From Gyrodactylus bullatarudis (taxonomy: Eukaryota; Platyhelminthes; Monogenea; Gyrodactylidea; Gyrodactylidae): DNA of 64,000 nucleotides. Shown in pieces: positions 211-32,500 of the stretch. The notes beneath the pieces were generated by a model, which saw only the letters and a list, made by a program, of their open reading frames with translations, did no database searches and had not been told where the DNA came from. The position numbers and the translations under genes were made by a program. Location: assembly GCA_012064415.1 (NCBI GenBank), contig SSNU01000208.1, forward strand, positions 1-64,000. The letters run 5' to 3'. How positions within the stretch are numbered: position 1 is the first letter of the stretch; every line of letters starts with the position of its first letter.

Positions 211-2789
211 TTGTACATACTTATTTATATTTTATTATCAGTTTAATAAAAAAAAGATTTCTATTCCAAAATGAATGAAAATAATAATTTTGAAAGAATC
301 AGTAAAATTTGAAGAAACACACGAAAAACTATCATATTCTCAATTTTCATTCATCAAGTAAGCTGGTAACAATACACTTGACTAATCCAAAATCTGTTTT
401 CTAATCAAGATAATAGCCTTTCTAGCGATTGTATTCCATTATATATGTGGTATGCATTCTATAAATAACGAAAAACTAGCCGTTATACGAATACTTACTC
501 AAATGAAGAGAACAAATAACAATGAAACTTTAATCCAAAAAATAGCAAAACATTAAAACATTTATTCACAGATATATCGATATTAATGTAATAGTGAAGC
601 ACTTATACTTACAAAGATTATCTACAATTATTTCGTTTTAGGTCGCTTCTAAGTGGTAATATATCCCAAAGATTCGTCTTATTTGGTAATGGATTAGCCC
701 ATGTCTTATTTTGGACTCATTAGCATGCCACAACCTGTGGTTTGAATCTAGGACCTCTCCCATTGTAGCTCACTATAATTGGTTAGCAGAATCTAAAGAG
801 TTCTATTATTCTCCACAAGAGAATTAATCAATATTAAGAAACCCCTACTGAATTCTTATTGGTGAATTTAATCTCAACCAATCAAATTTTAGTCTAAATC
901 TTTTAATTTGACTGATATATAATTCAGAATATTAATATATCTCGTGTAGAGAAATTTGATCACATAAAATGAACGATACAAATGTGATAGACTCTGCCAA
1001 AATGGAGTTGAAATAATTATGACCTTCCATTTGCTGTCGTGATTAAAAAAAGAGATAATAAATTTTCTCAATCGCTAACAAAAAATAGCGAGATTTGTAG
1101 TGATAAAAGCTGTTTCTTTGATTCATTTCCCCTTGTTTCATTTGTGTCAATCTGGAGATAAAATTTTATTCTTGTCTCCAATCTTTCCTTCAGATCAGGA
1201 TCATTTCACTTTTCTTTTCATTTCAATCACTGATAAAACTGTATAATCTCTAAATTTTAGAAAAATTAGTTATTTCCAAGATAAAATTAAACGTTTAAGC
1301 CATGATTCTGTTTCAAAGATTCTTAAAGTAATGATGATTAACCTATTTTCTTAAAGAAGAACTTTTATTTATTCGAATAAAATATGATTCATTAAGCTAC
1401 AATGATTTATTGATGATTTTAATTTAAAAATGACTCGTTTTCAAGAACCCACTCACATAAGTCAAAGGGAATAAAGTAAGAAACTTTTAACGAGAATTAG
1501 AAAATGTTATATTTCTACTTTGAAGTAAACATGGATCTCGAGGCATTTTCTAAGATTTATTTCACTGAAACTGGATTTAAATTGTGTTTTTTCTAGAATT
1601 TTCCAGCTTCAATTGTGATAAATACAGGTTTTTAATTTTCAGGTATCAGATTCTAACCCAAGTGAGTTACATAAAAAACTTTTATACCTCAAACGGGATG
1701 CAATATCATCCATAAGAAAATTACAGAAGTTGGTTTCTTGGACAGCAAATTATGTCTTGACAATAAAATCTTAGTATGATTTTCTATAGCTAGGAAAAGA
1801 TTAATACCAAGCTACTTTCATCTTCTCAAAGAAGAAGAAACATTTAATATGCATGTAAAAATAAAGAGTATTCAAAGACCGCTACACACCTAAATATATG
1901 GAAAAGATCAATCACAAATGGAGAACAATGAAAAAAACTTTGCCGAAAATAGACAGTTTCTATCTAAATCTATTTCTACTGTTTTAGTCTTGATATTACA
2001 ATTATAATCATTCTAGTTCTTTCTCCTATAGAAAAAGAAGAAATTATTTTATTACTACAGATTGAATATCAAAATAAATCAAATAGCTACTAATCTAAGG
2101 ACTTTGTCGATGTTTCAAGCTCCTCATAATTTGCCATGTCCCCTATGTTAATATTGAAGAGAATATTCTATAGAATGATGATAGAATTATCGAGCGAATT
2201 CAACTCCAATCCTATTGGTAGATTTTGGAATGCATATGCTTAAATCTCGCACACTGATTGGCTGACCTAGTTCATTGTAAATATCTCTTAGGTCATTTAG
2301 ACTTTTGAATCAGGATTTATATTTTTTATCAGGAGTTATTTTTTGAATATAATACTATATATACTTAGTATTAGAAATAAAAACTGTGCAAATGCCTGTA
2401 ATCAGTCAAATTTATAAAAAATTCAAATTTCCACATTTTTACCGATTCATACTCGCTCAATTAAAAGAATACCGATCTTATAGCGATTCACACCAATCGG
2501 TAAAAAACCCTAGTCATAGGTTAGATGAGTTCCTATAATTAAAAAAAATATTCTTTTAACATAAATATAGAACATTGGATATTAGAGATAGATTTTGGAA
2601 ATTTTCGATTTCTAGCCTGGGTCAGAATCTGAATGGGCTCTTCAGGAGAATTTGATTTATGCATAAAACATGTATGGTCTGAAATCTATTTGTGAACTGG
2701 TTTCAATAGAAACAATAGTTTTGTATTTAAAATTAGCGTGATGAAAAATTTGCTGAATTTGATTTCGGCCATTTATTCTCATGATAGAA
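211..2789. other. Non-coding stretch with one repeat relic
   Basis: No credible exon was found on either strand. Apart from a decayed copy of the hammerhead-bearing repeat (listed separately), it is unique-looking AT-rich DNA. The segment just before 2780, ending in CATGATAGAA, resembles a stretch near 10860-10910, so the retrozyme at 2790 inserted into an older dispersed repeat. Confidence 0.4.
589..772 (-). repeat. Relic of hammerhead repeat family A
   Basis: Read on the minus strand this matches the 360-nt unit at 2791-3150: the tRNA-like end, the ribozyme region and the 3' tail are all recognisable. The middle of the unit is deleted. The ribozyme core is damaged: the CTGATGA box reads CTAATGA and the stem II/GAAA/stem III part is truncated, so it should not cleave. 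Confidence 0.6.
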
Positions 2790-3240
2790 TGAATAGTGCC
2801 GCACCTATACTTACAAAGTTTAACTAGAAATATTTCGTTCTAGGTGCTTAGCTCGTATATCCCACTGGAACGTCTTATTTGGTAATGGATTAGCCCATGT
2901 CGCTGAATGTTACAGCTTACTAATGGATCCCACCGAGACTGGTACGAAAGAAACTCACAAAGCATTTAGAAATAATCTAAGTATACATATATGGTGGACA
3001 TATACGCGCGTTTCGTCCTTTTTCTGGACTCATCAGTATGCCACAACCTGGGATTTGAACCTCGGACCTCTCGCATTGTAGTCCAACATCCCATGCAACT
3101 CGGATTACTTCTATATGCTCTTTGGTACCCCTAGGGTTTTGCTAACTAATGAATAGTGCCGCACCTATACTTACAAAGTTTAACTAGAAATATTTCGTTC
3201 AAGGTGCTTAGGTTGTATATCCCACAGGAACGAAATATTT
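2790..3240 (-). mobile_element. Retrozyme-like insertion, family A (1.25 tandem units)
   Basis: Direct comparison shows that the sequence from 2791 restarts at 3151, an exact 360-nt period, and then stays nearly identical for about 80 bp. The insertion is thus one full unit plus a quarter of a second. The 10-bp sequence CATGATAGAA lies on both sides (about 2780-2789 and 3241-3250), consistent with a target-site duplication. On the minus strand the unit holds a tRNA-like box B region (3051-3061), a hammerhead ribozyme and a non-coding tail. There is no ORF. Small non-autonomous retroelements with hammerheads, inserted as partial tandem multimers, are known as retrozymes in plants and animals; assignment to that class is inference. 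Confidence 0.75.
2997..3042 (-). ncRNA. Type I hammerhead ribozyme, apparently intact
   Basis: On the minus strand the order is: stem I strand GGCATA (3042-3037), core CTGATGA (3036-3030), stem II GTCC/GGAC with a 7-nt loop, GAAA (3014-3011), a short self-complementary stem III CGCGCG (3010-3005), then TA and the second stem I strand TATGTC (3002-2997). Stem I closes with five Watson-Crick pairs and one G-U. All conserved core residues are present and the predicted cut follows the A at 3003. The core closely resembles the schistosome SINE hammerhead. Stem III has almost no loop, as in elements thought to work best as dimers. Confidence 0.88.
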
Positions 3241-3530
3241 CATGATAGAAGCTAAAATATTTTTCTCCTAATCATTTTCAATATAGTATAAGTAAAATTA
3301 GTCTTGCGGATCAACTATTTCTATCGAAGACTCTTCTTCAATGACTACTTGAAAGTAATGCTAATATCAAATTTGAGACATTTTTACTAGAAATGGAACT
3401 TGAGCACTATCACTGCCACTTTAATAGAAATTTTAATTTTGGACAAAAATTTATATTGTTCATTCTGATCCACATTTTCACCCAGAGAAAATTATATTAA
3501 ACATATTAGAATTATTATTATTTATTATTA

Positions 3531-29500: not shown

Positions 29501-32500
29501 TCCCGATCTATGGTAAATTGGCAGGTAGATGTCGCTACTCTTTATTATCAACTGATTCAATATCATTAGAGATATTAAAACAAAGTCTTCATTGTCCTAT
29601 GGGAATTTAATAAAAAAAGGATTATCAATCTCCAATTCAGAATTTCAGATTAATTTTTTATGAAAGGTAAAAAAGTCTTAGAAAACAGTATAATTTTTTG
29701 CAATTCAAGTTGGATTTTGACTCGAGGCTCACTTATTCATGAGAGTAAATAGATTTATCAGTAGATTACTTATTTTAAAGCAGGAAATTGATAGCGAATA
29801 TTGATAATGAAACTTAATTTATGTTGATTCAATTCAACAGTCCCCCCACCACTCAAAATGACAGGCATGAGATAAATGGACTAAAAAAGGGTATCTTTCT
29901 CCTGGTAACTTCTATAGAAGAGACTTTGAAGAAATCATGAGGTTATTCAAATTAAATCTAAAAAAAGGTTTTTTTTTAAGGATTTCAGATTTCAATATGA
30001 AGCAAAAAATTAAACAAGAGATTAATATTTTCAAAAGTACTTCTCAAACATTTGCAGTTATCTATATTTTAAAAATACCTTGAGTCTTCTTTCAAAAGTA
30101 ATCTTTATTATTTGGTTAATATATATGTTACCGGTAATCTTGTTACTCTTGATAGTCTCAAGACTCCTGGGCAAATCAGTTAAACTTGTTACTCGGTTTC
30201 AAGATTATCTGATAGTCTCAAGTATCCCGGGAATCTTGTTACTAGTAACAAGTTTAACTGACAATAACTAATTTTTTGACTTTTAGAATTTAGAAAGAAA
30301 AATCACTAATAAATTTTTATGATACAGCTGTATTTGATTACTTTTTAAACAAACAACTAACTATAAATAGGAGAAAGACTCGAAGGATTATTTTGAAAAA
30401 TTTACTAGATCCCAAAGATTTGGTAAGAGTTTAGATTATGAATAGAAGTTGATGAACTGATTAGTTAATATTGATGGAAGAAGAAGATGATGCCAGTTAT
30501 TTCACAAATAAGGCCTTTATTTCGGGCATACTCATCAGTGTGATACATGCCATATAAGTACAGATTTGCAAAACAGAAAATATACAGTCATTGGTTCAAT
30601 GTTATTACACTTTTGATTAGTTAATAAATTTCGTATGGATTGAAAATGAATATGAAGTTTTCAGGTTATAATTCTAGATAATATCACACAGGTATAGTTT
30701 TCATTTCTACCGATTATCAAATTTTGTAAAGCTAATAAGGTTCTATTGATGTGTAACACTTCTGAAAAGAGATTCTGAAAAAATCCTAGGGGTGTTATGA
30801 ATAAACTGAGTGATTTTTCTTTCTAAATTCTAAAAGTCAAAAAATTAGTTATTGTCAGTTAAACTTGTTACTAGTAACAAGATTCCCGGGATTCTTGAGA
30901 CTATCAGATAATCTTGAAACCGAGTAACAAGTTTAACTGATTTGCCCAGGAGTCTTGAGACTATCAAGAGTAACAAGATTACCGCTAACATATACATCTG
31001 TCTTCTGATTGGTTTAAGCATTCGATCTTGATTAGGCCAATTAGTAAAGGCCACAGAATAAATAAAAATATTATCATCTTCAAGAGATAGTGAACATAAA
31101 CCTATCACTAATAAACAGCATTATTTTTCAACTAACTTCAAATCATCACCGAATGAGATATTGTATTTAAAAACAACTCACCTGAAGTAATATCAGCTCG
31201 AGGAATTGAACTAGATGATAGGCAAATGTAAAGCCGTTAATTAATCGAGGACCAACTCGTTTGATATCCAGAGTTTCCAGGGAATCAACAATCTTTGATA
31301 GTAAGGCCAATGCTTGAAATCTAATGGGAAAGTTGGAGCCTTACTGAAGAGAAGGTTGGATAGTTAGCAGTCTGGACTCACCTTATCGATTGGTTTATCG
31401 TATTCTTGTAGACAATAGGTAGGATTATTGAGATTTCATCGATAAAGACATTTCTATTCTCATTCATTACATCATAGTTCAAATTTTGATATGCATCCTT
31501 GATGATTTGGTCAAAGATTTCTGTAAAATTATAATATTATTATATATATGTCATCGTATTTATCCTTACGTTACTTTTACGTTTTTTCAAATATTCTTAT
31601 CCCCAGTAAGTAAGCTTACTTATTTTTACATTTATTCCCTCAGCAGTTTTTGTGTTTGTATAAAAATCTCTCAACATAAATAAGACACATTGTTGACAAT
31701 TTTTTTATCCCTGTATTTGATAAGGGCCCATTGGATAATTCAAATCTTATTGGTGTGACAATGAAACGTGACAAACATTTAACCATTTTAAATCTAGTCA
31801 AACTCATAAATTAAAATCAAGAAAAAGATGATATTTAGCTGATATTAGTCTAGAGTGTAAAGTTGAGAATTTAAAGATTTTACAAAAATAAAATATGAGC
31901 AGATTATAATCGATTTGGCTTGGTTGATTTCCTTGACAAATTGTGATCCTGAACGACAACTCTTTAGAACAACAAAAATTTCCAGCTCAAAGTTTAAAGA
32001 AAATAAGAAAATCTATTTTTTCTTAAAATAGTAAGGTTGAATACAGTTGCAGAAGTAAAACTAGAAACATTCCTCCTAAAATATATAAGTTAATTCACAA
32101 AATATGAAACTACACAATAGGGATAAATTTAAAAATTTTCAGATGCCTACATATATAAGGATGTTTTGATATCTAAGGAATCTACAGGTGTAAAATTTCA
32201 CTTTTTTCTAGGGATGATGTCAATACAATAAAGTTTTAAAGAATTCCATTTTTAACGAAAATAAATCACATTACTTTTAAGTTTCATGTACATTTTCGAT
32301 TAGAGTCCATGGTTTTAACAATTGATTTAAGAAACTACTGTATTCAATCTTAATAATTTGCTTGAACAAATAAATAACTTCCAACAACAAAAATTCAATC
32401 CAAGATTGATCATTTACAGCTTTTAAAGATTCGAAAAATAATTGGTTTTTGAATTTCAATACATTTTGTAAATAGAAAAATCATTCAATATATTTTTTTA

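What the first reader, a model, noticed from the sequence alone, without database searches (positions are those of the whole stretch)
2780..3250. A retrozyme-like insertion: 360-nt unit, 1.25 copies, hammerhead and target-site duplication together
The sequence from 2791 restarts at 3151 exactly 360 nt later, the whole insert is flanked by CATGATAGAA on both sides, and the unit carries a complete type I hammerhead. Insertion of a non-integer number of head-to-tail units is what one expects if the template was a multimeric or circular RNA processed by the ribozyme. The tRNA-like head joined to the ribozyme makes it close to the schistosome hammerhead SINE, but the tandem 1.25-mer structure points to retrozyme mobility.
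Basis: partly seen in the sequence, partly recalled or inferred. Interest (0 to 1): 0.9.

Follow-up and report, generated by a model that had tools for sequence, protein, structure and literature searches.

The report
Ribozyme mini-element copied by Penelope machinery
A short non-coding jumping element with a self-cutting ribozyme appears, from how its copies sit in this animal genome, to be inserted by the enzyme of another element family (Penelope) that copies its RNA onto both ends of the cut DNA, which offers a direct test of who moves such ribozyme elements.

Summary
In detail: an 85-nt stretch (2788-2872) recurs 360 nt later (81 of 85), an 11-bp target duplication flanks the insert, and a type I hammerhead lies on the minus strand. 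Complete relatives in the same 77-Mb genome are not plain tandems but two inverted arms of one non-coding RNA. One outer end lies at RNA site A (u210-218), the other at site B (u175-185), about 34 nt apart. Of 29 copies with a target duplication, 22 are A/B automatically, 3 more have a tiny second arm (the window copy among them), 4 have one arm, none is A/A or B/B. Over all 69 intervals read: 27 A/B, 1 A/A, 2 B/B, 31 with one assignable end, 8 with none. Inverted arms, a tail at one end only, and priming on both target strands are published marks of Penelope-like elements (PLEs); resident PLEs (RT, GIY-YIG, minimal hammerhead) show the same ends. Best reading: a hammerhead mini-element inserted by PLE-type priming on both strands. 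Circular versus linear template stays open; the usual direct two-hammerhead tandem was not found. PLE mobilisation of retrozymes was proposed before, on circumstantial grounds.

The parts
2779..2789 (.). left target-site duplication TCATGATAGAA
   Evidence: score 11; 28 of 55 copy intervals score >=8 against 4.9% of 3000 mismatched flank pairs
3240..3250 (.). right target-site duplication TCATGATAGAA
2788..3232 (-). arm A: antisense (cDNA) of the unit on the + strand, RNA sense on the - strand, from end A (u~215) through one full unit to u~131, about 445 nt
2791..3150 (-). one 360-nt unit (380 nt with the 20 nt that other copies hold)
2788..2872 (-). terminal direct repeat, copy 1 (pseudo-LTR-like), 81 of 85 identical to copy 2
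3148..3232 (-). terminal direct repeat, copy 2
3228..3241 (+). arm B: 14-nt inverted piece GAACGAAATATTTC ending at site B (u174-176); shares GAACG with arm A and TC with the duplication, 7 bases unshared
   Evidence: chance about 0.3%; 22 duplication-flanked relatives have a longer arm with the same kind of outer end
2997..3042 (-). type I hammerhead ribozyme, predicted cleavage between 3003 and 3002; helix III arms ACGC/GCGU palindromic
   Evidence: RF00163 29.2 bits, E 4e-5, below gathering 34; catalytic CTGANGA (N apart) and GAAA kept at 0.92-1.00 in the ~65 aligned segments that cover them
3051..3061 (-). B-box match GGTTCAAATCC of the tRNA-like head
   Evidence: sequence; motif recalled; no tRNA by ARAGORN
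3083..3088 (-). place where 20 nt (GAGTGGATTGAGCATTGGAC, A-box-like) of other copies are missing, between TTGGAC repeats
2818..2828 (-). site B (u175-185) inside the unit: RNA 3' start used by the second arm of other copies

Best explanation
The insert is a non-coding hammerhead mini-retroelement (360 nt here, 380 nt reference from relatives: tRNA-like head, hammerhead, RT-start region) inserted by the enzyme of a Penelope-like element (RT + GIY-YIG endonuclease). Proposed mechanism: the PLE protein makes a staggered cut leaving 3' overhangs of about 12 nt. Both overhang ends prime reverse transcription inside the mini-element RNA, one at site A (u~215) and the other at site B (u~180), about 34 nt apart. 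The two cDNAs run for variable distances, sometimes past a full unit, and are joined tail to tail without enriched microhomology. Fill-in gives the ~12-bp duplication. In the window copy cDNA A ran ~445 nt (one unit plus ~85) and cDNA B only about 12-14 nt, so it looks like a plain 1.25-mer. Shown by sequence: two fixed outer ends, one of each in complete copies, inverted arms, duplication size, the same anatomy in resident PLEs, and near-identity of the two arms in some copies. Inferred: that the PLE enzyme is the actor, the order of steps, ribozyme activity, and the form of the template RNA.
For: Ends: of 29 copies with a duplication, 22 are A/B by automatic end calling (A u210-218, B u175-185), 3 more are read as A/B with a tiny second arm (L001 = window, L032 about 13 nt, L041 about 16 nt), 4 one-armed (L019, L027, L043, L089), 0 A/A, 0 B/B. 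Without the duplication filter, 69 intervals give 27 A/B, 1 A/A, 2 B/B, 31 one-ended, 8 none. Duplications: score >=8 in 28 of 55, >=12 in 13 of 55, against 4.9% and 0.1% of mismatched flank pairs; lengths 8-13, 12 commonest. Two independent primings: B is the longer arm in 16 of 29 two-arm copies; in 23 of these 29 arm B stops before reaching u185-215, so arm A's outer end cannot be copied from it, and a snap-back copy of arm A would end at A, not at B. Same template: arms differ at 0 of 198 sites in L004 and 0 of 180 in L033, while the closest other arm differs by 3.0% and 1.7%; within-copy difference is below the mean between copies in 22 of 26 (mean 4.4% against 6.8%), and in 5 of 26 no other arm is as close. 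Resident PLEs: RVT_1 and GIY-YIG in one frame of L059, minimal hammerhead in the pseudo-LTR. Three copies with both ends computed (L054, L056, L083) have 11-12 bp duplications (L054 with one mismatch) and one end with, one without, a 54-62 nt tail; L076 shows the same by eye. Published: the anole PLE cleaves and extends both strands and starts RT at two adjacent internal sites that explain the 30-40 bp tail (PMC11167929, parts 1-2 of 4 read); rotifer Penelope copies have inverted pLTRs, a 31-bp tail on one of them and 8-10 bp duplications (PMC3846280, passages).
Against: RT-start sequences of the resident PLE family and of the mini-element are not convincingly alike (10 comparisons, p 0.004 to 0.998, one below 0.05), so no shared recognition sequence is shown and the exact PLE partner is not named. 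Tail lengths differ (about 34 against 54-62 nt). 27 of 55 examined intervals show no clear duplication. Of 69 intervals 39 lack two assignable ends; I read them as one-armed, truncated or short pieces, without proof. L045 and L040b come out B/B and L035 A/A with palindromic flanks, all without a good duplication. A cruder end assignment gave 24 A/B, 4 A/A, 2 B/B of 69; three of its A/A and one of its B/B are A/B or A/other. Arms of other copies are often as close as the partner arm (424 of 1794 comparisons). No enzyme or RNA evidence exists here.
Confidence: 0.75

Rival explanations
1. Retrozyme route: the ribozyme yields a monomer that is circularised, and RT runs round the circle, so copies have non-integer length; a PLE or LINE enzyme may still do the insertion.
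For: 41 of 64 curated arms cross the ribozyme cleavage site and only 1 (L033 B) stops within 5 nt of it, so the template was uncut or religated. Eleven arms exceed one unit. Five arms stop after about one turn at u204-223, near the A start, as if colliding with the first cDNA (L019, L021, L025, L026, L039). No arm in the curated table is longer than about 1.25 turns. Circular RNAs are published for retrozymes of other animals (PMC7229834, passages).
Against: No direct pair of exact hammerhead cores one unit apart (0), while an inverted-pair pattern finds its known locus C129; in the 100 of 220 core hits that were listed, the four near pairs (C122, C129, C199, C234) are all inverted. Seven of 8 second-pass arms that reach u150 stop at u129-138 whether they began at A or B, against 1 of 58 first-pass arms, which looks like a fixed RNA 5' end; but L007 (u101), L091 (u67) and the truncated L084 (u80) and L086 (u120) run past it, and a constant run past the first cDNA's start on a circle could also give a fixed stop.
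Confidence: 0.35
2. Linear template (a refinement of the best explanation): a transcript beginning near u130 of a 1.25-mer copy and running uncut through one unit to beyond u216, so that the ~85-nt terminal repeats act as PLE-like pseudo-LTRs.
For: Second-pass stops at u129-138 in 7 of 8 arms; one-arm copies L043 (u130) and L089 (u138) join there to the target duplication; 1.25-mers would then breed 1.25-mers; in the anole PLE unprocessed RNA was judged the dominant substrate in vitro (PMC11167929, part 2).
Against: Small numbers; four copies run past u129; no promoter identified; does not explain stops at u204-223; an active ribozyme would cut such a transcript.
Confidence: 0.45
3. LINE-type target priming with twin priming, or a tRNA SINE moved by a LINE.
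For: Inverted arms and short duplications also occur with LINE twin priming (recalled); the tRNA-like head is SINE-like.
Against: Twin priming makes a minority of inverted copies, with the inversion upstream of the 3' part (recalled); here both arms start from the RNA 3' region at two fixed sites in 22 (25 with tiny arms) of 29 duplication-bearing copies, and no A-rich tail is seen at the ends listed. LINEs of this genome were not examined.
Confidence: 0.1
4. DNA transposon or MITE with terminal inverted repeats.
For: Inverted arms inside a target duplication.
Against: Arm lengths vary freely (14-467 nt in reference coordinates), the two outer ends differ (A and B) in 27 of 30 intervals with both ends assigned, one-arm copies with duplications exist, and arms can exceed one unit.
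Confidence: 0.03

Closest known systems
Metazoan non-LTR retrozymes (PMC7229834)
   Same: Type I hammerhead, non-coding 170-400 nt unit, duplications longer than 4 bp, coexistence with PLEs that carry minimal hammerheads.
   Different: There described as tandem dimers to large multimers expressed as circular RNA; here no direct two-hammerhead tandem found, arms of at most about 1.25 units in the curated table, inverted pairs with fixed A and B ends.
Penelope-like elements with pseudo-LTRs and tail (PMC11167929, PMC3846280)
   Same: Inverted terminal arms, tail at one end only, short duplications, AT-rich targets (duplications 81% A+T, flanks 70%), hammerhead in the RNA.
   Different: Non-coding and far shorter; ribozyme in the body rather than in the terminal repeat; RT-start sequence not convincingly shared with the resident PLE family tested.
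Schistosome Sm-alpha / Sj-alpha hammerhead SINE-like elements (named in PMC8490949, passages; sequences not held)
   Same: Flatworm host (here inferred from mitochondrial code), type I hammerhead, unit of 335 bp named there against 360-380 here; tRNA-like head recalled.
   Different: Not compared by sequence. Whether Sm-alpha copies are inverted A/B pairs was not found in the passages seen.

Membership tests
Metazoan non-LTR retrozyme | type I hammerhead | tested here: met
   RF00163 29.2 bits in the window, below gathering; above gathering in 2 of 8 loci given (L004, L024)
Metazoan non-LTR retrozyme | repeat unit of about 170-400 nt | tested here: met
   360 nt in the window, 380 nt with the 20-nt stretch of other copies
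Metazoan non-LTR retrozyme | genomic tandem copies with at least two hammerheads in direct orientation | tested here: not met
   0 matches to two exact ribozyme cores 354-384 nt apart; only inverted near pairs (4) in the 100 of 220 core hits listed. Diverged tandems could be missed
Metazoan non-LTR retrozyme | circular RNA | not testable with these tools
   no RNA data
PLE-mobilised element | inverted terminal arms within one target duplication | tested here: met
   22 of 29 duplication-bearing copies automatically, 25 with tiny arms
PLE-mobilised element | tail of about 30-40 bp at one end only | tested here: met
   A u210-218 against B u175-185; 27 of 30 intervals with both ends assigned are A/B, 3 are not (L035, L040b, L045)
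PLE-mobilised element | autonomous RT + GIY-YIG partner in the genome with the same end anatomy | tested here: met
   19 GIY-YIG matches, not all of them PLEs; RVT_1 + GIY-YIG in L059 and L060; duplications and tails of L054, L056, L083. That an intact partner exists was not tested
PLE-mobilised element | RT-start sequence shared with the partner | tested here: not met
   9 of 10 comparisons with five copies of one PLE family not significant; other PLE families not tested
tRNA-derived SINE | Pol III A and B boxes | tested here: inconclusive
   B-box match; A-box-like stretch in other copies, absent in the window copy; ARAGORN 0
tRNA-derived SINE | one fixed 3' end with A-rich or simple tail, one orientation | tested here: not met
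   two alternative ends and inverted arms

The most novel reading that the evidence does not exclude
Animal hammerhead retrozymes and hammerhead SINEs are PLE satellites: one RNA, perhaps circular, is held by a PLE dimer and copied from both ends of a staggered cut at two adjacent start sites, so that new copies are born as fold-back elements, and tandem-looking 1.x-mers are the special case in which one of the two cDNAs stayed very short.
Probability: 0.4. Interest if true: 0.75.

Novelty: new variant of a known kind. Interest (0 to 1): 0.62.

Why it matters
Which enzyme moves animal hammerhead retrozymes is an open question: the paper that described them across animals names PLEs a strong candidate on three circumstantial grounds (shared hammerheads, tandem copies, coexistence; PMC7229834 section 17). 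Fixed A/B ends are a footprint that can be scored in any genome and tested with a purified PLE protein. The copies also show in vivo what the anole PLE does in vitro: two start sites and both target strands. Searches that expect tandem repeats could misread such elements as MITEs or broken SINEs.

Tried and rejected
Snap-back self-priming was rejected: in 23 of 29 two-arm copies arm B stops before u185-215 and so cannot be the source of arm A's outer end; B is the longer arm in 16 of 29 (stops listed). In the other six (L002, L003, L005, L021, L025, L026) arm B runs nearly or fully round, so this argument does not apply to them.

Joining by microhomology: not clearly enriched (mean 0.91 against 0.69 expected; 8 of 34 junctions >=2 nt against 16.5% expected). 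The 5-nt GAACG overlap in the window copy may be chance.

Shared RT-start sequence with the PLE: an apparent GTGC..GCAC hairpin likeness did not survive shuffling.

Extra constraint on the ribozyme: its mean column agreement (0.937) lies within the range of the other regions (0.88-0.97).

An absolute RNA 5' end at u129-138: weakened by L007, L091, L084 and L086.

A solved-structure relative of the PLE frame: only weak hits to other reverse transcriptases (best E 2.7e-4).

Rows dropped: of 71 loci read for the mini-element (L001-L008, L011-L050, L067-L075, L084-L097) L047, L049 and L050 hold no good match; L040 holds two copies; this gives the 69 intervals. The duplication test was run on the 55 intervals held by then; of the 14 later loci only L089 was added to the 29, after reading its flanks by eye, and the other 13 were not put through that test. 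The curated arm table uses 35 copies (29 two-armed, 6 entered with one arm); its stops and the intervals were typed by hand. Arm comparison was given 27 copies; one (L044) had too little overlap.

Organism: could not be named; cox1 under code 9 points to a flatworm (or echinoderm). The 18S search failed.
Full report
What was checked. The window element is real: an 85-nt stretch at 2788-2872 recurs at 3148-3232 (81 of 85 identical), the insert is flanked by TCATGATAGAA (2779-2789 and 3240-3250), and a type I hammerhead lies on the minus strand at 3042-2997 (RF00163, 29.2 bits, E 4e-5, under the gathering score of 34). The RNA sense is the minus strand. I number the unit u1 = base 3002, just 3' of the predicted cut, downward; the alignment reference is 380 nt because other copies hold 20 nt (A-box-like) that the window copy lacks between two TTGGAC repeats.

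Host. The genome held is 77.3 Mb in 471 contigs, unnamed. Its cox1 scores 399.5 bits under code 9 and 379.8 under code 5: a flatworm is most likely; echinoderms share that code (recalled).

Relatives. A DNA search of the own genome listed 67 matches from the 40 scored of 914 candidates. Many lie in pairs, plus then minus, on the same spot. I read 71 loci for the mini-element (8, 40, 14) and cut each into unit segments with a jumping alignment. The recurring structure is: duplication, antisense arm, inverted junction, sense arm, duplication. In complete copies the outer ends lie at one of two RNA sites: A (...CACTATTCATTA) or B (...ATATTTCTAG).

Ends and duplications. In 55 copy intervals, 28 have a flanking duplication of score 8 or more, against 4.9% of 3000 mismatched flank pairs; 13 score 12 or more against 0.1%. 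Among 29 copies with a duplication (those 28 plus L089, found by eye), automatic calling gives 22 A/B, 5 A/other, 2 B/other. Three of the 'other' ends are read as tiny second arms: the window copy (14 nt, 7 of them unshared), L032 (about 13 nt, 88% alike with its overlap) and L041 (about 16 nt, 90%), seen. Four copies have one arm only. None of the 29 is A/A or B/B. Over all 69 intervals, without that filter, the count is 27 A/B, 1 A/A (L035, palindromic flanks), 2 B/B (L045, L040b), 31 with one assignable end and 8 with none. Ends in the duplication set lie at u210-218 (A) and u175-185 (B). Duplications are 81% A+T, flanks 70%.

How the arms arise. Both strands of the target must have primed: each arm is antisense cDNA attached 3' to its own flank. 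Fold-back copying does not explain the pair: in 23 of 29 two-arm copies arm B stops before u185-215, which the outer end of arm A carries, and a fold-back copy of arm A would end at A; either arm can be the longer (B in 16 of 29). Arms within a copy are alike: 0 of 198 differences in L004 and 0 of 180 in L033, with the nearest other arm at 3.0% and 1.7%; 22 of 26 copies have arms closer to each other than to the mean of others, though only in 5 of 26 is no other arm as close. So in the clear cases both cDNAs come from one RNA or from RNAs of one locus. Junctions show no clear microhomology.

Link to Penelope-like elements. Published work on the anole PLE reports cleavage and extension of both target strands, internal RT initiation at two adjacent sites, and that these two sites explain the 30-40 bp 'tail' (PMC11167929, parts 1-2 of 4 read). 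Rotifer Penelope copies have inverted pLTRs, a 31-bp tail on one, and 8-10 bp duplications (PMC3846280, passages read). The own genome has 19 GIY-YIG matches, not all of them PLEs, frames with RT and GIY-YIG, and pseudo-LTRs with a minimal hammerhead. Their copies show the same anatomy: L054, L056 and L083 have 11-12 bp duplications and one end with, one without, a tail of 54-62 nt. L054 is a PLE that landed inside a mini-element copy. The RT-start sequences of the two families are not convincingly alike, so the partner family is not proven.

Form of the template. Of 64 curated arms, 41 cross the ribozyme cut site and 1 stops within 5 nt of it (L033 B, u1): the template was uncut or religated. 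Eleven arms exceed one unit; the longest in the table is 467 nt in reference coordinates. This suggests an RNA 5' end near u130, and L043 and L089 join there to the duplication. Against it, L007, L091, L084 and L086 run further. Five arms stop at u204-223 after about one turn, which fits collision with cDNA A on a circle. No direct pair of exact hammerhead cores one unit apart was found (0; a control pattern found its known inverted pair), so no source locus for a self-excised monomer was seen. I leave linear and circular open, leaning slightly to linear.

What is known and what is new. Metazoan retrozymes are described as tandem repeats with circular RNAs, and PLEs as 'a strong candidate' for their mobilisation on grounds of shared hammerheads, tandem copies and coexistence (PMC7229834, section 17 read whole, other passages seen; PMC7761336 and the 2024 review PMC11722881, passages, say much the same). 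The word 'inverted' does not occur in the main text of PMC7229834. In the listings of searches of the held open-access library, and in the passages I read, I saw no description of inverted A/B arms or tails in retrozymes; most listed papers were not opened, subscription papers and preprints are not held, and PMC4209133 could not be read. The claim here is therefore a new variant of a known kind with direct anatomical support for a proposed link, in one genome.

Noticed in passing
window 30471-30607 (-), within 30119-30997: A solo PLE pseudo-LTR with minimal hammerhead lies in the 501-nt spacer of a 189-bp, 98% inverted repeat (30119-30307 / 30809-30997), perhaps nested in a MITE-like element.
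   Followed up: partly
L054 (G000:C103): A PLE with inverted pseudo-LTRs and an 11-bp duplication (TCTTATTTGGT, one mismatch) is inserted inside a mini-element copy.
   Followed up: partly
L035:961-1283: A copy with A ends on both sides whose host flanks are themselves inverted repeats of each other, unlike the other copies.
   Followed up: no
L092:227-599 and L096:215-661: Two copies share the same inverted junction (u368 joined to u161); they may be duplicated loci, or an inverted copy may itself have been retrotransposed.
   Followed up: no
L033:763, L062, L063, L065:305: Further hammerhead-like motifs suggest more PLE families in this genome; their tails were not determined.
   Followed up: no
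L033:1242: The only arm of 64 that stops at the predicted ribozyme cut (u1), possibly a cDNA of a cleaved RNA.
   Followed up: no
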